Origin: Burkholderia sp. 9120
GTDB lineage: Bacteria; Pseudomonadota; Gammaproteobacteria; Burkholderiales; Burkholderiaceae
Direction: 5' to 3'
Assembly (NCBI RefSeq): GCF_000745015.1
Contig: NZ_JQNA01000001.1
Coordinates: 620,001 to 684,000, forward strand
DNA length: 64,000 nucleotides
In this document: piece by piece, positions 7,111-56,420 of the stretch
Layout of the letters: each line of letters starts with the position of its first letter
Numbering within the stretch: the first letter of the stretch is position 1
Program-made: the position numbers and the translations under genes
Notes under the pieces: generated by a model
Databases searched by the model: none
What the model was told of the DNA's origin: nothing
The model's input: the letters and a program-made list of their open reading frames with translations, nothing else

Positions 7111-9807
7111 TTAGACGGTCATCGGGTTGGGTTTGGCGGGATCAAGGTTGTACTTCTTGAGCGCCTCGGCGACGACCTTGCGTTCGATCGTGCCTTCATC
7201 TGCCAGTGCATTCAACGCGGCAACCGTGACCCAGTAGCGGTCGACTTCGAAGAAGTGACGCAGCTTTTCACGCGTGTCCGAACGACCGTAGCCGTCCGTG
7301 CCTAGCACGACGAATTTCTGCGGCACGAACGCGCGGATCTGCTCGGTCAGCGCGCGCACGTAGTCGGTCGATGCGATGACCGGGCCTTGTGCGTCCTTGA
7401 GCAGCTTCTCGACGTGCGAGAGCTTCTTTTCTTCGTTCGGGTGCAGCAGGTTGTAGCGCTGCACTTCGTGACCTTCGCGCGCGAGTTCGGTGAAGCTCGG
7501 CACGCTCCACAGGTCGGCGGCGACGCCCCAGTCGTTCTTCAGCAGCTCGGCGGCGGCGATCACTTCGTTGAAGATCGTGCCTGCGCCCATCAGCTGAACG
7601 CGCGGCGCCTTCGCATCGGCTTCCGCCTTGCTGAACGCGTACATGCCCTTGATGATGTCGGCCGCTACAGCGTCGCCCTGCGGAATCGCCGGGTGCTCGT
7701 AGTTTTCGTTCATCACCGTGATGTAGTAGTACACGTCTTCCTGATCCGCGACCATGCGTTGCAGGCCGTCCTGCACGATAACCGCGAGTTCGTAACCGAA
7801 CGTCGGGTCATAGCTGATGCAGTTCGGCACCGAAGCGGCCCACAGCAGCGAGTGGCCGTCTTCGTGTTGCAGACCTTCGCCGTTCAGCGTCGTACGGCCC
7901 GCGGTGCCACCCAGCAGGAAGCCGCGCGAACGCATGTCGCCCGCTGCCCAGCACAGGTCGCCGATACGCTGGAAGCCGAACATCGAGTAGAAGATGTAGA
8001 ACGGGATCATGGTCTCGCCGTGCGTCGAGTACGACGTCGCGGCAGCGATCCAGTCCGCCATACCACCGGCTTCGTTGATGCCTTCCTGCAGAATCTGACC
8101 GGTTTCCGACTCGCGGTAGAACATCAGCTGGTCGGAATCTTCCGGCACATACTTCTGGCCGTCCTGATTCCAGATACCGATCTGGCGGAACAGGCCTTCC
8201 ATACCGAAGGTACGCGACTCGTCCGGCACGATCGGCACGATGCGCTTGCCGAGGGCCTTGTCCTTCAGCAGGATGTTCAGGATCCGCACGAACGCCATCG
8301 TCGTGGAGATCTCGCGGCCTTCGCCCGTGCCTTTCAGCAGCGGCTCGAATGCCGTCAGTGCCGGCACCGGCAGCGACTCAGCCTTCTGACGGCGCGCCGG
8401 CAGATAACCGCCCAGGTCCTGGCGGCGAGCGCGCATGTACTCGAGTTCCTTCGAACCTTCTTCGAACTTGAGGTACGGCACGTTGACGAGGTCTTCGTCG
8501 GTGATCGGCAGACGGAACTGATCGCGGAATTTCTTCAGCTGATCGACATGCAGCTTCTTCTGCTGGTGGGTGATGTTCATCGCCTGGCCAGCTTCGCCCA
8601 TGCCGTAGCCCTTGATCGTCTTCGCGAGAATGACGGTCGGCTGGCCTTGCGAGTTCGACGCTTCGGTGAACGCCGCGTAGATCTTGTGCGGATCGTGGCC
8701 GCCGCGGTTCAGGTTCCAGATGTCCTCGTCGGACCATTCGGCGACCAGCGCCTTCAGTTCCGGCGTGTTGAAGAAGTGTTCGCGCACATACGCGCCCGAC
8801 TCCGACTTGTACGTCTGGTATTCGCCGTCGACGACGTCCATCATGCGGCGCATCAGCGCGCCCGACTTGTCGCGTTGGAACAGCGCATCCCAGCGGCTGC
8901 CCCACACCACCTTGATGACGTTCCAGCCGGCGCCGCGGAATTCGCTTTCGAGTTCCTGGATGATCTTGCCGTTACCGCGCACCGGGCCATCGAGGCGCTG
9001 CAGGTTACAGTTGATCACGAACACCAGGTTGTCGAGGCGTTCGCGGCCGGCCATACCGATCGCGCCGAGCGATTCCGGTTCGTCCGTTTCGCCGTCGCCG
9101 AGGAAGGCCCAGACCTTACGGCCCGTGGTCTTCGCGATACCGCGCGCGTGCATGTACTTCATGAAGCGCGCCTGGTAGATCGCCATGATCGGGCCGAGGC
9201 CCATCGACACGGTCGGGAACTGCCAGAAGTCAGGCATCAGCCACGGATGCGGATACGACGAGATGCCCTCGCCGCCCACTTCCTGACGGAAGTTGTCGAG
9301 CTGGTTTTCGGTCAGACGGCCGAGCAGGAACGCGCGCGAGTAAACACCCGGCGACGAATGGCCCTGCACGAAAATCAGATCGCCGCCATGTTCGGGCGAC
9401 GGAGCGTGCCAGAAATGGTTGTAGCCGACGTCATACAAAGTGGCTGCCGACGCGAATGAAGCGATGTGGCCACCGACGTTGGTGTCCTTGCCGGCGCGCA
9501 GCACCATGGCAATGGCGTTCCAACGGGTGTACGAACGGATACGGTGCTCGATGTCCTGGTCGCCGGGGATCTTCGCCTGGCGCGCAACCGGAATCGTGTT
9601 GATGTACGGGGTGTTAGCCGAGAACGGCAGATGTTCGCCATGCACGCGGGCGAATTCGATCTGTTTCTCGATCAGGTAGTGGGCGCGATCGGGGCCCACA
9701 GCAGAAATCACGCCATCCAGCGCTTCCAGCCATTCGCCGGTTTCCTGGGGATCGTCGTCTTTTTCGGCGGCGACATATTTCATGACTTCGTCGGGTACAG
9801 CGGACAT
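7111..9807 (-). CDS. aceE: Pyruvate dehydrogenase E1 component, homodimeric type
   Basis: This 898-residue protein is close to the usual length of homodimeric bacterial E1 (about 890). It decarboxylates pyruvate with thiamine diphosphate and acetylates the lipoyl arms of AceF. The ThDP-Mg motif is visible as GDGETDEPE near residue 236, ending in NCNLQ about 30 residues later. The N-terminal E2-interaction region and the YYYITVMNENYEHP segment are also typical. An AGGAGA precedes the ATG at 9807. It is first in the aceE-aceF-lpdA operon. No regulator gene such as pdhR is next to it. Confidence 0.96.
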   Translation of the reverse strand: MSAVPDEVMKYVAAEKDDDPQETGEWLEALDGVISAVGPDRAHYLIEKQIEFARVHGEHLPFSANTPYINTIPVARQAKIPGDQDIEHRIRSYTRWNAIAMVLRAGKDTNVGGHIASFASAATLYDVGYNHFWHAPSPEHGGDLIFVQGHSSPGVYSRAFLLGRLTENQLDNFRQEVGGEGISSYPHPWLMPDFWQFPTVSMGLGPIMAIYQARFMKYMHARGIAKTTGRKVWAFLGDGETDEPESLGAIGMAGRERLDNLVFVINCNLQRLDGPVRGNGKIIQELESEFRGAGWNVIKVVWGSRWDALFQRDKSGALMRRMMDVVDGEYQTYKSESGAYVREHFFNTPELKALVAEWSDEDIWNLNRGGHDPHKIYAAFTEASNSQGQPTVILAKTIKGYGMGEAGQAMNITHQQKKLHVDQLKKFRDQFRLPITDEDLVNVPYLKFEEGSKELEYMRARRQDLGGYLPARRQKAESLPVPALTAFEPLLKGTGEGREISTTMAFVRILNILLKDKALGKRIVPIVPDESRTFGMEGLFRQIGIWNQDGQKYVPEDSDQLMFYRESETGQILQEGINEAGGMADWIAAATSYSTHGETMIPFYIFYSMFGFQRIGDLCWAAGDMRSRGFLLGGTAGRTTLNGEGLQHEDGHSLLWAASVPNCISYDPTFGYELAVIVQDGLQRMVADQEDVYYYITVMNENYEHPAIPQGDAVAADIIKGMYAFSKAEADAKAPRVQLMGAGTIFNEVIAAAELLKNDWGVAADLWSVPSFTELAREGHEVQRYNLLHPNEEKKLSHVEKLLKDAQGPVIASTDYVRALTEQIRAFVPQKFVVLGTDGYGRSDTREKLRHFFEVDRYWVTVAALNALADEGTIERKVVAEALKKYNLDPAKPNPMTV

Positions 9808-10037: not shown

Positions 10038-10069
10038 TTTTTGCGCCATTTGCTAGCGACCTGCTGCGC

Positions 10070-10082: not shown

Positions 10083-11453
10083 ATGTTGACCGAACGGCTT
10101 TTCGCTCGCTCGGCGCGCACCGCTGGTTCGCCGGCGGATTCGACGCCGTCCTCCCGCTGGCACCATGGACCATGGTGGTCGAATTCCTATTTGCTGACGC
10201 CGCTCCTGTCGATCCTGGTGTTCCTGGTCGTCATGAGTCTGATTTTGTGGAGCCTGAATCGGCGGGAACAGCAACAGCAGGAAGACACGCTTTACCGTAA
10301 TGTCGCGTGGGCGCAGCAGCAGATCCGCCTGTCCATGACGGGCGCGCAGGAACAGATTCAGGCGCTGGCCCGCGATCTGGTCGCCGGCCACGCCGATCCG
10401 CATTCGTTCCAGGTGTCCACAACAGACATCATGCAGGGGCATCCCGAGATCCTCTACATGAACTGGTATACGAGTCAGCAGCAGCCGCGCTGGCCCAATA
10501 CTGCATTGCCCGTGTTCGGCCAGCGTCTCGCCAAACCGAACGACGCGCAAATGGACGAGGCGGTCAAAGCCGCCTTCACCGAGGCGCGCAACACGCGCCG
10601 CCAGGTCTACTCCCCGCTGATCTACGACGACGTCGGCAACGGCTACATCACGCTGCAAACGCCGGTGTTCCGCGACCGCGACTTTCTCGGCACGATTGCC
10701 GCCGTGTTCTCGGTCGAAGGCATCCTGAAGCACGACATTCCGCCCGAGTTGTCGGCTAAATACAAAATCTCGATCATCGACGTGAACAACCGCGAGTTGA
10801 CCACCACGTCGACCCGCCCGCGCCTGCCGCGCGACATGTTCTACGATCTGCCGCTCGACCCGCCGGGCCAAGGCGTCTCGGTACGCGTCTACGCGTTCCC
10901 GCAGATGACCAACTTCACCAACAACACGCTCGTCTGGCTGGTGGCCGGCCTGTCGTGCTTCGTGCTTCGTGCTGTGGAGTCTGTGGAGTTTGTGGAAGCA
11001 CACGCGGCAACGCTTCGAAGCGCAACAGGCGCTGTACGCCGAAGCGTTCTTTCGCCGCGCGATGGAAAATTCCGTGCTGATCGGTATGCGCGTGCTCGAT
11101 ATGCACGGCCGCATCACCCACGTGAATCCGGCGTTCTGCCGCATGACCGGCTGGGACGAAAGCGATCTGGTCGGCAAGAACGCGCCGTTCGCCTACTGGC
11201 CGCGCGATTCGTACCCGGAAATGCAACGCCAGCTCGATATGACGCTGCGCGGCAAGGCGCCGTCGTCGGGCTTCGAACTGCGGGTGCGCCGCAAAGACGG
11301 TTCGACGTTCCACGCCCGTCTCTATGTATCGCCGCTGATCGACAGCTCGGGCCGCCAGACCGGCTGGATGTCGTCGATGACCGACATCACCGAACCGAAA
11401 CGCGCGCGCGAAGAACTCGCCGCCGCGCACGAACGCTTCACCACCGTGCTTGA
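10083..11453 (+). CDS. Membrane sensor histidine kinase, 5' piece (frameshifted at about 10954-10974)
   Basis: The genuine part of this frame is about 290 residues. A first membrane segment (residues about 37-58, LSILVFLVVMSLILW) is followed by a periplasmic Cache-like sensor region (about 60-275). A second membrane segment (VWLVAGLSCFVL) then breaks off. At 10954-10974 there are three copies of CGTGCTT/G. Removing one 7-base copy joins this frame in phase to the kinase part downstream. Beyond about 10975 the frame is out of phase and codes only an Arg-rich shadow up to the stop at 11453. Start choice is uncertain: ATG 10074 and 10083 are both possible and neither has a Shine-Dalgarno. The frame may be a true mutation, a phase-variable switch or an assembly error. 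Confidence 0.7.
   Translation: MLTERLFARSARTAGSPADSTPSSRWHHGPWWSNSYLLTPLLSILVFLVVMSLILWSLNRREQQQQEDTLYRNVAWAQQQIRLSMTGAQEQIQALARDLVAGHADPHSFQVSTTDIMQGHPEILYMNWYTSQQQPRWPNTALPVFGQRLAKPNDAQMDEAVKAAFTEARNTRRQVYSPLIYDDVGNGYITLQTPVFRDRDFLGTIAAVFSVEGILKHDIPPELSAKYKISIIDVNNRELTTTSTRPRLPRDMFYDLPLDPPGQGVSVRVYAFPQMTNFTNNTLVWLVAGLSCFVLRAVESVEFVEAHAATLRSATGAVRRSVLSPRDGKFRADRYARARYARPHHPRESGVLPHDRLGRKRSGRQERAVRLLAARFVPGNATPARYDAARQGAVVGLRTAGAPQRRFDVPRPSLCIAADRQLGPPDRLDVVDDRHHRTETRARRTRRRARTLHHRA
10954..10974. repeat. Three tandem copies of a 7-bp unit causing a frameshift
   Basis: CGTGCTT, CGTGCTT and CGTGCTG lie end to end inside the second membrane segment of the kinase. With two copies the protein would read LSCFVLWSLWSLWKH without interruption. 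The third copy shifts the frame by one. Confidence 0.85.
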
Positions 11454-12606
11454 AAGTCTCGACGCGGCCGTGTCCGTGCTGGCCGCCGACGAAGCCGAAC
11501 TGCTGTTCGCCAACCGCTACTACCGTCATCTGTTCGGTATTCGTCCGGACGGCCATCTGGAATTGGCGGGCGGCGGGTTCGATAGCGCACAGGCCTCGTC
11601 CGATTCGATCGATATGGTGGATACCTATGCGGGCCTGCCCGCTGCGGCGCTGACCGAAAGCACCGCCGACGCACAGGAAATCTACGTGCAAAGCGCCCAG
11701 AAATGGTTCGAAGTGCGCCGCCAGTACATTCAGTGGGTGGACGGCCACCTCGCGCAGATGCAGATCGCGACCGACATCACCACCCGCAAGCAGGCGCAGG
11801 AACTGTCGCGCCAGCAGGACGAAAAACTGCAGTTCACCAGCCGCCTGATGACCATGGGCGAAATGGCCTCGTCGCTCGCGCACGAACTGAATCAGCCGCT
11901 CGCCGCCATCAATAACTATTGCTCCGGCACCGTGGCGCTGGTTAAATCCGGTCGAACCACGCCCGACAATCTGCTGCCGGTGCTCGAAAAGACGGCCCAA
12001 CAGGCGGTGCGGGCAGGCATGATCATCCGGCGGATTCGCGAGTTCGTGAAACGCAGCGAGCCGAAGCGGCAAGCCACGCGCGTCGCCGATATCGTCGCGG
12101 ACGCGGTGGGCCTGGCCGAGATCGAAGTGCGCAAGCGGCGGATTCGCATCGTCACCGATCTGCGCTCGCGTCTGCCGGTGATCTACGTCGACCCGGTGCT
12201 GATCGAGCAGGTGCTGGTCAACCTGCTGAAGAACGGCGCCGAAGCCATGGCCGAAGCGCGCCCGAATGCGGTCGATCCGGTGATCCGCGTGGTTGTGCGG
12301 CTGGAGAGCGGGTTTGTCTGCATCAGTGTCGTCGACCAGGGTCCGGGCGTCGACGAAGCGACAGCCGAGCGGCTGTTCGAACCGTTTTACAGCACCAAGT
12401 CCGACGGTATGGGCATGGGGCTGAACATTTGCCGTTCGATTATCGAATCGCACCGCGGTCGTCTGTGGGTGGTCAACAACGTCGAGTCCGACGGTCACAT
12501 CACAGGCGCCACGTTCCATTGCAGTCTGCCTATTGGAGAGCCTGACGGCCCGAGCAACGGCGGGTCAGAGGCGCCGACACCACAAACCGTTACGGGAGAG
12601 CTATGA
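10969..12606 (+). CDS. PAS-PAS histidine kinase, 3' piece of the same gene
   Basis: This 545-residue stretch contains the cytoplasmic part of the sensor kinase. It starts with the end of the second membrane segment (WSLWSLWKH). A PAS domain (about 27-145, VNPAFCRMTGWDESDLVGK) and a second PAS-like domain (about 150-265) follow. The dimerisation helix has the H-box SLAHELNQPLAAINN (phospho-accepting His near 305). The ATPase domain has NLLKNGAEA, DQGPGVD and GMGMGLNICRS boxes. The H-box type is that of FixL/DctB-like kinases. The GTG at 10969 lacks a ribosome binding site, so translation probably depends on the upstream piece. The stop overlaps the regulator start by 4 bases (ATGA), so kinase and regulator are translationally coupled. 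The signal is unknown. Confidence 0.8.
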   Translation: MLWSLWSLWKHTRQRFEAQQALYAEAFFRRAMENSVLIGMRVLDMHGRITHVNPAFCRMTGWDESDLVGKNAPFAYWPRDSYPEMQRQLDMTLRGKAPSSGFELRVRRKDGSTFHARLYVSPLIDSSGRQTGWMSSMTDITEPKRAREELAAAHERFTTVLESLDAAVSVLAADEAELLFANRYYRHLFGIRPDGHLELAGGGFDSAQASSDSIDMVDTYAGLPAAALTESTADAQEIYVQSAQKWFEVRRQYIQWVDGHLAQMQIATDITTRKQAQELSRQQDEKLQFTSRLMTMGEMASSLAHELNQPLAAINNYCSGTVALVKSGRTTPDNLLPVLEKTAQQAVRAGMIIRRIREFVKRSEPKRQATRVADIVADAVGLAEIEVRKRRIRIVTDLRSRLPVIYVDPVLIEQVLVNLLKNGAEAMAEARPNAVDPVIRVVVRLESGFVCISVVDQGPGVDEATAERLFEPFYSTKSDGMGMGLNICRSIIESHRGRLWVVNNVESDGHITGATFHCSLPIGEPDGPSNGGSEAPTPQTVTGEL

Positions 12607-13244
12607 ACAGCCCAGTCACCACACAGGAAACCGTCTTTGTCGTCGACGACGATGAGGCCGTACGAGATTCGCTGCGCTGGCTACTGGAGGCGAACGGCTA
12701 CCGCGTGCAATGCTTCTCCGGCGCCGAGCAGTTCCTCGACGCCTGGCATCCGCATCAGCAACCGGGCCAGATCGCGTGTCTGATTCTCGATGTACGGATG
12801 TCCGGCATGAGCGGACTCGAATTGCAGGAACGCCTGATCGCCGACAACGCTGTGTTGCCGATCATCTTCGTGACGGGCCACGGCGATGTGCCGATGGCGG
12901 TGTCGACGATGAAAAAAGGCGCGATGGACTTCATCGAAAAGCCGTTCGACGAAGCCGAGTTGCGCAAGCTGGTCGAGCGCATGCTCGACAAGGCGCGCAG
13001 CGAAAGCACCAGCGTCCAGCAACAGCGCGCCGCCGCCGAGCGCCTGGGCAAGCTGACCGCGCGTGAGCACCAGGTGCTGGAGCGCATCATCGCCGGCCGT
13101 TTGAACAAGCAGATCGCCGACGACCTCGGCATCAGCATCAAGACGGTCGAAGCGCATCGCGCGAACATCATGGAAAAGCTCAACGTCAACACGGTCGCCG
13201 ATCTGCTGCGACTGGCGCTGTCGAACAAGCCGCAACAGGCGTAG
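12603..13244 (+). CDS. FixJ-family response regulator (receiver plus LuxR-type HTH)
   Basis: This 213-residue protein has a receiver domain with the acidic pocket VVDDDEA, the phospho-acceptor Asp in LILDVRMSG (about residue 60), Thr in FVTGHGD and Lys in EKPFDE. A Q-linker and a LuxR/FixJ helix-turn-helix follow (LTAREHQVLERIIAGRLNKQ, then KTVEAHRANIMEKL). It is the cognate partner of the kinase upstream: the start codon overlaps the kinase stop. The target genes are not evident; the exported DUF3300/DUF2950 pair downstream is one possibility by proximity only. The regulator itself is intact even though the kinase frame is broken. Confidence 0.92.
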   Translation: MNSPVTTQETVFVVDDDEAVRDSLRWLLEANGYRVQCFSGAEQFLDAWHPHQQPGQIACLILDVRMSGMSGLELQERLIADNAVLPIIFVTGHGDVPMAVSTMKKGAMDFIEKPFDEAELRKLVERMLDKARSESTSVQQQRAAAERLGKLTAREHQVLERIIAGRLNKQIADDLGISIKTVEAHRANIMEKLNVNTVADLLRLALSNKPQQA

Positions 13245-13881: not shown

Positions 13882-15222
13882 GTGAAACGATCCGGAGCAC
13901 ACCGCTCGCGTGTGATGCTGGTTTGCGCCGCTCTGGCCGGGGCGCCACTCTTCGTCGGACTGCTCGCGCCGAGCGCGGTCCACGCGCAAAGCGCGCCGAA
14001 GATGTCGAACCAGCAACTCGACTCGCTGACCGCGCCGATCGCGCTGTATCCCGACGCGCTGCTCGCCCAGGTGCTGATGGCCTCGACCTTTCCGCAGGAC
14101 GTGCAGGCCGCGGCCGCGTGGTCGAAAGCGAACTCGAAGCTGCAAGGCGACGACGCGGTCAAGGCGGTCGCGTCCGAACCGTGGGATCCGAGCGTGCAGT
14201 CGCTGGTCGCCTTTCCCCAGGTACTCGCCACGATGGCCTCGAAACCCGACTGGGTCGCGCAACTGGGCACCGCTTTTCTCGGCCAGTCCAACGACGTGAT
14301 GGACTCCGTGCAACGCTTGCGCAAGCAGGCGCAGGCCGCCGGCAATCTGAAGACCAGCTCGCAGCAGAAGGTCGTGGTCGAACAGAGCACGATCCAGATC
14401 GTGCCGGCCAATCCGCAGGTGGTCTACGTGCCGACCTATAACCCGACGGTGGTGTACGGCACCTGGCCTTACCCGGCGTATCCGCCGGTGTATGTGCCGC
14501 CGCCGCCCGGCTATGCGATCGCGAGCGGTCTCGCCGCGGGGCTTGCGTTCGGCGCCGGTGTCGCCGTGGCCAATTCGCTGTGGGGCGGCTTCAACTGGAA
14601 TACGCATGACGTCAACATCAACGTCAATCGCTACAACAACGTCAACGTGAACAACCGGCTCAACGTCAACAGCAACACGACGAACTGGAACCGCAACGCC
14701 AACGTCAATCGCAACGTCAACAACGCGAATCTGAATCGCAACGGCAATAACAACCTCGGCGGTGCGCAGCGCGATGCCTACCGTGGCCGCGACGACGCCC
14801 GCGCCCAGGCGCAGCAAACCCTGCAGAACCGCACCGGGCAAAATCTGAGCGGCAATGCGAGCCAGCGCGTGCAAGGGATCCACCAGGGCGGTACGGCGAA
14901 CGCCGATTTGCAGAATCGCGCGCAGAACGTCAATCGAGATAACGCGCTGCGCGGCGCCGGCGACGGCAACAACGCCCGTCAGGATATGCAGCGCGGCCAG
15001 TCGAGCCGCGATTCGCTCGCGAATCGCGGCGGTCAGCAACGCACGGGAGGCGGCGTCGGCGCCAATGGCGGCGGTCAGCAACGTACGGGCGGCGGGCTCG
15101 GCGCGAATGGCGGCGGCGTCCAGCGTGGCGGCGGCGGTGGCGGTGGTGGCGGCAGGCTCGGTGGCGGGGGTGGGGGCGGCGCTGGTGGTGGCGGTGGACA
15201 CCATTTCGGCCGCGGCCGTTGA
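13882..15222 (+). CDS. Exported DUF3300-domain protein with Asn/Gly-rich tail
   Basis: This is a 446-residue protein. I choose the GTG at 13882 because GGGAGGA lies 8 bases upstream. The resulting N-terminus (VKRSGAHRS, then a hydrophobic run ending SAVHAQ) is a signal peptide. Residues about 35-180 are the DUF3300 domain (LTAPIALYPDALLAQVLMAS, later VVYVPTYNPTVVYG). A Pro/Tyr-rich segment and one hydrophobic Gly/Ala segment follow. The rest, from about residue 230, is low complexity: an Asn-rich stretch with NVN repeats, then Gln/Arg-rich, then poly-Gly. The function of DUF3300 is unknown. It is followed by a DUF2950 gene whose frame opens before this stop, a pairing that recurs in proteobacteria. 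An envelope role is inference. Confidence 0.85.
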   Translation: MKRSGAHRSRVMLVCAALAGAPLFVGLLAPSAVHAQSAPKMSNQQLDSLTAPIALYPDALLAQVLMASTFPQDVQAAAAWSKANSKLQGDDAVKAVASEPWDPSVQSLVAFPQVLATMASKPDWVAQLGTAFLGQSNDVMDSVQRLRKQAQAAGNLKTSSQQKVVVEQSTIQIVPANPQVVYVPTYNPTVVYGTWPYPAYPPVYVPPPPGYAIASGLAAGLAFGAGVAVANSLWGGFNWNTHDVNINVNRYNNVNVNNRLNVNSNTTNWNRNANVNRNVNNANLNRNGNNNLGGAQRDAYRGRDDARAQAQQTLQNRTGQNLSGNASQRVQGIHQGGTANADLQNRAQNVNRDNALRGAGDGNNARQDMQRGQSSRDSLANRGGQQRTGGGVGANGGGQQRTGGGLGANGGGVQRGGGGGGGGGRLGGGGGGGAGGGGGHHFGRGR

Positions 15223-55580: not shown

Positions 55581-56420
55581 TCAGTGCTGATCGGGTGGAC
55601 GGCCACCGCCACCACCACCGCCGCCGCCGTTGCCGTTGCCGCCGCCCTGTGGCCGGCCTCCGCCACCTTGCGGAGGACCGCCTTGAGGACGGCCACCCGC
55701 ATTGCCCTGAGGACCGCCTGGACGACCGGCACCCCCATTCCCGGGCTGAGGCCCACCCGGTCGACCACCACCTGCACTCCCCGGCGGCGGACCACCCGGT
55801 CGACCACTACCTGCATTCCCCGGCGGCGGACCACCCGGTCGACCACCACCCGCATTCCCCGGCGGCGGACCACCCGGTCGACCACCACCCGCATTCCCTG
55901 GCGGCGGACCGCCCGGTCGACCACCACCTACATTCCCAGGCGGCGGACCACCCGGTCGACCACCACCCGGCGGCCGTCCCGCACCGGGTCGCGGCGGAGG
56001 CGGCGGCGGGTGATGCGCCCAGCGCGACTGCTGCCCATACCACGGCCGGCCGCGATAGTAATTCCCCCAGTAAGCGCCAATCGAAAACGTCACGATCGGC
56101 AGGCCGATCACCGTGCCGTAGTTCATCACCGGCACGTTGCCGCCCTGGTACGGATACGTGAGACGTCCCGCATACACCCAGCCGCGCAGATTCGGCGCGG
56201 CGACATCGCACCATTGATAGTTGCTGAGACACCCCATCACGGTCAGCGGCACGCCGCCGGGCAACTGCGTCACGACCGGGTAATCCGACGCGGGACCAGC
56301 ACGCACGTTAACCGTGCTGCTCGTATAAGCCTGCGACTGCGCTTGGGCCCCCGCGGACACAGCGAACAAACCGGCCGCTGCATAAAGACATCGAAAATGT
56401 CGAACGAGGTGCTGTTTCAT
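55581..56420 (-). CDS. Exported SH3-domain protein with Gly/Pro repeat tail
   Basis: This 279-residue protein begins with a signal peptide (hydrophobic run ending GAQAQ). A bacterial SH3 domain follows (about 30-95, STVNVRAGPASDYPVVTQL and the Trp-Cys pair WCDVAAPNLRGWVYAG). The family often binds peptidoglycan or other envelope ligands. A short Tyr/Gly segment then leads into a Pro/Gly-rich tail of six near-identical 13-residue units of the type RPGGPPPGNAGGG. The tail ends in poly-Gly and PPDQH. GGGAGACAG lies before the ATG at 56420. It probably forms an extended, flexible surface- or wall-facing stalk, which is inference. Confidence 0.8.
   Translation of the reverse strand: MKQHLVRHFRCLYAAAGLFAVSAGAQAQSQAYTSSTVNVRAGPASDYPVVTQLPGGVPLTVMGCLSNYQWCDVAAPNLRGWVYAGRLTYPYQGGNVPVMNYGTVIGLPIVTFSIGAYWGNYYRGRPWYGQQSRWAHHPPPPPPRPGAGRPPGGGRPGGPPPGNVGGGRPGGPPPGNAGGGRPGGPPPGNAGGGRPGGPPPGNAGSGRPGGPPPGSAGGGRPGGPQPGNGGAGRPGGPQGNAGGRPQGGPPQGGGGRPQGGGNGNGGGGGGGGGRPPDQH
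55745..55978. repeat. Six tandem 39-bp repeats inside the SH3 gene
   Basis: The landmark CACCCGG recurs at 55754, 55793, 55832, 55871, 55910 (one base changed) and 55949, exactly 39 bases apart. The units code for 13 residues and keep the frame. Confidence 0.9.

What the first reader, a model, noticed from the sequence alone, without database searches (positions are those of the whole stretch)
10954..10974. A 7-bp tandem repeat switches a membrane sensor kinase out of frame
Three copies of CGTGCTT/G lie inside the second membrane helix. Two copies restore an uninterrupted helix and join the sensor to the PAS-kinase part, while three shift the frame by one. The response regulator and all kinase motifs are intact, so the break is recent or reversible. 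Simple repeats in coding DNA are classic sites of slipped-strand phase variation, which would make this a two-component system that can be switched on and off at the sensor. Assembly error is the main alternative.
Basis: partly seen in the sequence, partly recalled or inferred. Interest (0 to 1): 0.8.

Follow-up and report, generated by a model that had tools for sequence, protein, structure and literature searches.

The report
Recent 7-bp duplication splits sensor kinase
In this Paraburkholderia genome a seven-base stretch is present once too often inside a conserved sensor gene and cuts its reading frame in two; it looks like a fresh one-off mutation rather than a built-in on/off switch.

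Summary
(TCGTGCT)x3 at 10953-10973, inside the second membrane helix of a sensor kinase, breaks the reading frame. The sensor half runs out of frame to 11453; the PAS-kinase half is a separate frame, 10969-12606; the response regulator is intact.

Relatives settle the direction. Of 143 other Paraburkholderia genomes, 142 gave the site: none has three units and 140 have one uninterrupted gene. The 80 named loci kept (of 562 relatives) are uninterrupted. A three-unit pattern hit only the window's genome among 398 of the family. The two-unit form is just the codons for Ser-Cys-Phe-Val-Leu and is inexact in 84 of 142, so it is not kept as a switch.

Substitutions private to the window in the two halves are 21 synonymous, 0 non-synonymous: the break is very young, or an artefact.

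The gene is the orthologue of the Burkholderia cepacia complex 'FixL' that mutates repeatedly in lung infections (851 aa, G345, R347, W439 match), yet its PAS lacks the histidine of true FixL.

Verdict: recent private slipped-strand duplication; reversal conceivable, evolved phase switch unsupported.

The parts
10953..10973 (+). (TCGTGCT)x3 tandem array, one unit more than relatives, inside the second membrane helix
10074..11453 (+). Sensor half of the FixL-like kinase (start ATG 10074 or 10083; first membrane helix about 10191-10247; extracytoplasmic domain; start of second helix), then out-of-frame tail from about 10969 to the stop
   Evidence: ORF list gives the longest form from a TTG at 10041
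10969..12606 (+). Kinase half as a separate frame: PAS (about 11053-11388), HisKA (about 11854-12057), HATPase_c (about 12190-12534); corresponds to residues 307-851 in the numbering of B. dolosa FixL
12603..13244 (+). FixJ-like response regulator (receiver plus LuxR-type DNA-binding domain); its ATG overlaps the kinase stop as ATGA
7111..9807 (-). Divergent aceE-like gene (898 aa), present beside the kinase gene in 80 of 80 named loci
   Evidence: the name aceE is recalled from the sequence, not from a family search

Best explanation
A spontaneous slipped-strand tandem duplication of seven bases arose very recently in the lineage, or the cultured clone, that was sequenced. A 14-base stretch that by codon choice already held two copies of TCGTGCT served as template. 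The result is a split gene: a membrane-bound sensor half with a truncated second helix and a nonsense tail, and a PAS-kinase half without its own clear ribosome-binding site. Most likely (inferred, not shown) little kinase is made, translation no longer runs into the overlapping start of the response regulator, and the FixLJ-like pathway is down. Shown here: the array, the frame break, its absence from every relative examined, and purifying selection on both halves until very recently. Inferred: slippage as the cause, loss of function, youth in years or passages.
For: Array and frames. One copy of the gene in the genome (three other matches are short, 58-124 bases). The 801-base query matches about 793-794 bases in nearly all relatives. 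At the site 0 of 142 placed genomes have three units, 58 have two exact units and 84 inexact ones; 140 of 142 are uninterrupted. The two exceptions are G104, cut by a contig end, and G078, which has its own one-base frame break elsewhere in the sensor half. The closest genome, G105, is 98.3% identical over 3.8 kb and has one unit fewer. Window-only substitutions against G105, G016 and G094: 8 synonymous and 0 non-synonymous in 290 codons of the sensor half, 13 and 0 in 542 codons of the kinase half. Precedents for the mutation type: CTGG insertions and deletions at a three-unit repeat are the largest class of lacI mutations (PMC3485313, passages), and 11-base repeat insertions break the covS sensor gene (PMC4072638, passages).
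Against: No reads could be examined, so an assembly error is not excluded. Only one genome per species is held, so it is unknown whether sister strains vary. Loss of function is not shown: the kinase half covers all of the soluble 329-851 fragment that was enzymatically active in vitro in B. dolosa (PMC8406202, passages and section 8).
Confidence: 0.72

Rival explanations
1. Assembly or sequencing error: the real chromosome has one unit fewer and the gene is intact.
For: Every relative placed has one unit fewer, and both halves show no non-synonymous window-only change, just as an intact gene would.
Against: A perfect 21-base array is short enough for any read type to span, and a clean 7-base gain is not a typical single-base error (general knowledge). 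With a crude gene caller, the only other net frame-changing indels against the two neighbours inside called genes were 8 (4 against G105, 4 against G016). Seven of these lie within 150 bases of a called start, where the start may be wrong; the eighth lies in a poorly aligned stretch. So the assembly does not look generally broken. The caller missed some genes, including the sensor half itself.
Confidence: 0.17
2. An evolved contingency locus: unit number changes back and forth by slippage and turns the sensor kinase on and off in the population.
For: A short tandem array whose unit length is not a multiple of three, in a regulator's coding sequence; reversible slippage at sensor or regulator genes is known (flgS/flgR of Campylobacter, PMC3930126, passages). 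Exact two-unit sequence is commoner (58 of 142, 41%) than the product of the gene's own codon frequencies (0.176), though the species are related and not independent. The same heptamer forms arrays of 3-7 units at one place each in 7 other Paraburkholderia genomes.
Against: Three units seen in no other genome at this site (0 of 142, 0 of 80; 1 of 398). The repeat is inexact in 84 of 142. Arrays of two scrambled heptamers of the same composition also occur, in 3 of 144 genomes each, so heptamer arrays are a general feature. Three units is far below the usual length of contingency repeats (recalled).
Confidence: 0.06
3. The split is functional: translation restarts at the GTG at 10969 or a later start and gives a kinase freed from its periplasmic sensor, so that signalling is altered and not lost.
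For: The kinase frame holds everything in the 329-851 fragment shown to autophosphorylate and pass phosphate to FixJ in B. dolosa (PMC8406202, section 8); it starts at residue 307 in that numbering. The kinase half shows no decay.
Against: No ribosome-binding sequence is evident in the 20 bases before the candidate starts (by eye). The sensor frame runs 480 bases past the restart point. Lack of decay is explained by youth.
Confidence: 0.05

Closest known systems
Burkholderia cepacia complex FixL (BDAG_01161 / AK34_969), a sensor kinase under selection in chronic lung infection
   Same: Orthologous gene. The start that gives the published length of 851 aa in B. dolosa LMG 18943 puts W at 439, and G345 and R347 fall on G and R. 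The fixJ-like partner lies downstream and aceE-like divergently upstream in the named loci.
   Different: There the reported changes are mostly amino-acid substitutions in PAS/PAC (PMC8406202 section 5; PMC5234846 passages); here it is a frame break in the second membrane helix, in Paraburkholderia.
Spontaneous small tandem duplications that break a sensor gene (covS of Streptococcus pyogenes, 11-base repeats)
   Same: A repeat of adjacent sequence in a sensor gene that shifts the frame (PMC4072638, passages).
   Different: Those arose under known selection in infected mice and patients; the selection here, if any, is unknown.
lacI CTGG x3 frameshift hotspot
   Same: Three short tandem units in coding sequence that gain or lose one by slippage (PMC3485313, passages).
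   Different: Unit of 4 rather than 7 bases; three units is the intact state there.
Slipped-strand phase variation of FlgS/FlgR in Campylobacter jejuni
   Same: Two-component regulators put out of frame by repeat-length change (PMC3930126, passages).
   Different: Homopolymer tracts with demonstrated reversion; here no second state has been seen in any strain of this species.

Membership tests
Phase-variable (contingency) locus | Repeat array conserved as such among relatives | tested here: not met
   Exact two units in 58, inexact in 84, three in 0 of 142 genomes placed
Phase-variable (contingency) locus | More than one unit number among isolates of the species | not testable with these tools
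   One genome per species is held; no reads
Phase-variable (contingency) locus | High-frequency reversible switching with phenotype | not testable with these tools
   Needs cultures
FixL (haem oxygen-sensor kinase) | Score above the curated FixL cut-off | tested here: not met
   NF041777 221 bits against 850 for the kinase half alone; 206.5 in the genome search; the model is of rhizobial FixL
FixL (haem oxygen-sensor kinase) | Haem-ligand histidine in the PAS domain (position recalled) | tested here: not met
   His of the annotated S. numidicum FixL (EHDGY) aligns with Arg in the window and B. dolosa, Pro in Robbsia, Lys in Pandoraea; one alignment, with gaps nearby
FixJ (response regulator) | Score above the curated FixJ cut-off | tested here: not met
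   230.1 bits against 255; 43% identical to S. numidicum FixJ; receiver and GerE domains present
Bcc 'FixL' orthologue group | Length and diagnostic residues of B. dolosa FixL, with neighbouring fixJ | tested here: met
   851 aa, G345, R347, W439 in L081 (B. dolosa LMG 18943), and the same residues in the window's kinase half; regulator downstream in 79 of 80 loci by a coordinate rule, which L077 fails because its locus is shorter on the left

The most novel reading that the evidence does not exclude
The duplication is a reversible two-state lesion under selection: cells with the extra unit make a kinase half cut loose from its membrane sensor (or none), retuning a global regulator, and back-slippage restores the other state. 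It would be the frameshift counterpart, in Paraburkholderia, of the recurrent fixL mutations of the B. cepacia complex.
Probability: 0.08. Interest if true: 0.55.

Novelty: new member of a known kind. Interest (0 to 1): 0.3.

Why it matters
The finding itself is an ordinary mutation type. It gains interest because the gene is a core Burkholderiaceae regulator whose orthologue is among the genes that mutate most in chronic B. cepacia complex infection (PMC5234846, passages). A broken copy in a Paraburkholderia genome (and a different frame break in G078) would suggest that fixL is also lost or retuned outside the lung, or during laboratory culture, if reads confirm it. It also warns that calling this protein an oxygen-sensing FixL rests on a PAS domain without the expected haem ligand.

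Tried and rejected
Rejected: chance or trivial low-complexity repeat. Rejected: a second intact copy elsewhere in the genome (three other matches, 58-124 bases, 70-78% identity). Rejected as evidence: the built-in 'read backwards' control, because TCGTGCT is its own mirror image; two scrambled heptamers were run instead. Not informative: sigma-70 and terminator scans, 0 promoter-like sites and 1 terminator-like site against 3.7 expected. Raw indel listing was dominated by alignment noise and intergenic differences and was replaced by clustered indels in called genes. Pfam and NCBIfam gave nothing for the sensor half of the window, nor did sequence search of solved structures. Literature searches for a sensor-kinase switch by a short tandem repeat, for Paraburkholderia phase variation and for fixLJ with Paraburkholderia listed no report of this site; only titles and starts of abstracts were seen there, and subscription papers are not held. 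The Ralstonia phcA duplication and Bordetella bvgS precedents are recalled only; for phcA I saw only a reference-list entry.

Rows dropped before counts: G128 (no placed gene, fragmentary genome) is outside the 142; loci of the window's own genome and repeat fetches (L001, L031, L123-L125, L131, L249) are outside the 142 and 80, though they are among the 231 rows; one search used alignment pieces of 600 columns or more.

Full report
What is there. The window holds three perfect copies of TCGTGCT at 10953-10973. It is the only perfect 7-base x3 array in the 64 kb, and 200 simulated sequences gave a mean of 0.0. The array sits where a sensor kinase enters its second membrane helix. The upstream frame (start ATG 10074 or 10083) encodes a first membrane helix, an extracytoplasmic domain and the start of the second helix, then runs out of frame to 11453. 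The downstream frame is closed by a TGA at 10906, has its first ATG/GTG/TTG start, GTG, at 10969, and carries PAS, HisKA and HATPase_c to 12606. The response regulator starts at 12603 with an ATGA overlap.

Which state is ancestral. The same DNA was sought in 144 genomes of the genus (143 besides the window's own), and loci were read for 142 of the 143; G128, a fragmentary genome, gave no placed gene. None of the 142 has three units. 58 have two exact units and 84 have the same amino acids with inexact units. 140 have one uninterrupted gene; G104 is cut by a contig end and G078 has a one-base frame break elsewhere in the sensor half. A protein search of a second genome collection found 562 relatives, of which the best 80 were kept; all 80 are uninterrupted across the site, 43 with two exact units and 37 inexact. 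The two sets share species. A 30-base pattern for the three-unit site with up to 3 mismatches matched 1 of 398 family genomes, the window's own; diverged three-unit sites would be missed by that pattern. The closest genome, G105, is 98.3% identical over 3.8 kb and has one unit fewer. The extra unit is therefore derived and private.

The organism. G016 of the same genus has the contig length (801,010) and the junction sequence of Paraburkholderia bryophila LMG 23644 (L054), so the genus is taken as Paraburkholderia.

How old. Counting changes found in the window and in none of G105, G016 and G094, the sensor half has 8 synonymous and 0 non-synonymous changes in 290 codons, and the kinase half 13 and 0 in 542 codons; the first 93 codons of the regulator have none. 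A gene broken for long would not look so. The break is very young, or the gene is not truly broken in the living strain (artefact, or a reversible state).

Artefact or real. I could not see reads. Against the two nearest neighbours, net frame-changing indel clusters inside genes called by a crude third-position G+C rule numbered 8; 7 lie within 150 bases of a called start and one in a poorly aligned repeat stretch. So the assembly is not visibly full of frame errors. The caller picked 40 genes and missed some, among them the sensor half. The genome is in two contigs of 1.88 and 6.58 Mb.

Is it a switch? A phase-variable locus normally keeps its repeat. Here the two-unit form is the codon string for Ser-Cys-Phe-Val-Leu and is inexact in most relatives. 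In favour of a repeat-prone site: exact two-unit sequence is commoner (41%) than the product of the gene's own codon frequencies (17.6%), but the species are related and the figure is not independent evidence. The same heptamer also forms arrays of 3 to 7 units at one place each in 7 other genomes of the genus; two scrambled heptamers do so in 3 of 144 genomes each. Short heptamer arrays therefore arise in this genus generally. Reversal by slippage is plausible by analogy with lacI, where CTGG is tandemly repeated three times and gains or losses of one unit are the largest mutation class (PMC3485313, passages). Slipped-strand switching of a two-component pair is known in Campylobacter (PMC3930126, passages), and short repeat insertions that break a sensor gene are known in covS (PMC4072638, passages). 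None of this shows switching here.

What the gene is. The papers on B. dolosa FixL give residues 329-851 as the soluble construct and G345S, R347H and W439S as lung-infection alleles (PMC8406202, passages and sections 5 and 8). In B. dolosa LMG 18943 (L081) the start that gives 851 residues puts W at 439, Y at 329, G at 345 and R at 347. The window's kinase half has the same residues. The window's gene is thus the orthologue of that FixL. In B. dolosa the gene had 17 non-synonymous mutations among outbreak isolates (PMC5234846, passages), and a B. multivorans homologue had three mutations (PMC5069766, passages). The aceE-like gene lies divergently upstream in 80 of 80 named loci and the regulator downstream in 79 of 80 by a coordinate rule.

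Is it a FixL? By the tests made, not in the strict sense. The curated rhizobial FixL model gives 221 bits against a cut-off of 850, and FixJ 230.1 against 255. The histidine of an annotated Sinorhizobium FixL aligns with Arg in the window and B. dolosa, Pro in Robbsia and Lys in Pandoraea; that this histidine is the haem ligand is recalled. The sensor half is predicted (mean pLDDT 82.9) to fold as a dCache-like domain: the top solved structures include KinD of Bacillus subtilis (one entry with pyruvate, rank 7, E 5.8e-7, TM-score 0.47 by query length) and amino-acid chemoreceptors. Pfam dCache_1 matches 5 of 34 members of the alignment. With the divergent aceE-like gene, sensing of a small carboxylate is a lead, not a result.

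Likely mechanism. Shown: duplication, frame break, private to this genome, young. Inferred: slippage during replication; the sensor half inserts with a damaged second helix; the kinase half is poorly translated; translation no longer reaches the overlapping regulator start; the pathway is down. Deleting fixLJ in B. dolosa increased biofilm and reduced motility (PMC8406202, passages), so a growth-condition advantage of loss is conceivable but untested. The rival in which a restarted kinase half stays active cannot be excluded, because the purified 329-851 fragment was active (PMC8406202, section 8).

Verdict. A true and well-read observation whose best explanation is ordinary: a recent tandem-duplication frameshift in a conserved regulator. 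I put 0.72 on a real recent mutation, 0.17 on an artefact, 0.06 on an evolved switch and 0.05 on a functional split. Interest 0.3.

Noticed in passing
window 11053-11388 (PAS domain of 10969-12606); L081, L106, L114: The PAS domain of this Burkholderiaceae 'FixL', B. dolosa included, has Arg, Pro or Lys where an annotated Sinorhizobium FixL has the histidine I recall as haem ligand, so the oxygen-sensing label may be wrong.
   Followed up: partly
window 10134-10952 and 7111-9807: The sensor half is predicted as a dCache-like domain, with KinD (one entry with pyruvate) among the top structural matches, and the gene is divergent from an aceE-like gene in 80 of 80 named loci: a lead to carboxylate sensing.
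   Followed up: partly
L213 (genome G078): A second, independent frame break in the same gene: a one-base length difference in the sensor half, in 1 of 142 other genomes placed.
   Followed up: partly
window 10972-10996: Directly after the array lies an in-frame 9-base repeat (2.8 copies) that encodes the tryptophan-rich end of the second helix, LWSLWSLW.
   Followed up: no
L126-L130, L132, L133: The heptamer TCGTGCT (reverse AGCACGA) forms arrays of 3-7 units at other places in 7 other Paraburkholderia genomes; TGTCGCT also forms long arrays, at least 15 units, in G074.
   Followed up: partly
window 55711-55969 and 15018-15137: A 39-base array of 6.6 copies and a 42-base array of about 2.9 copies inside ORFs; possible length-variable proteins.
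   Followed up: no
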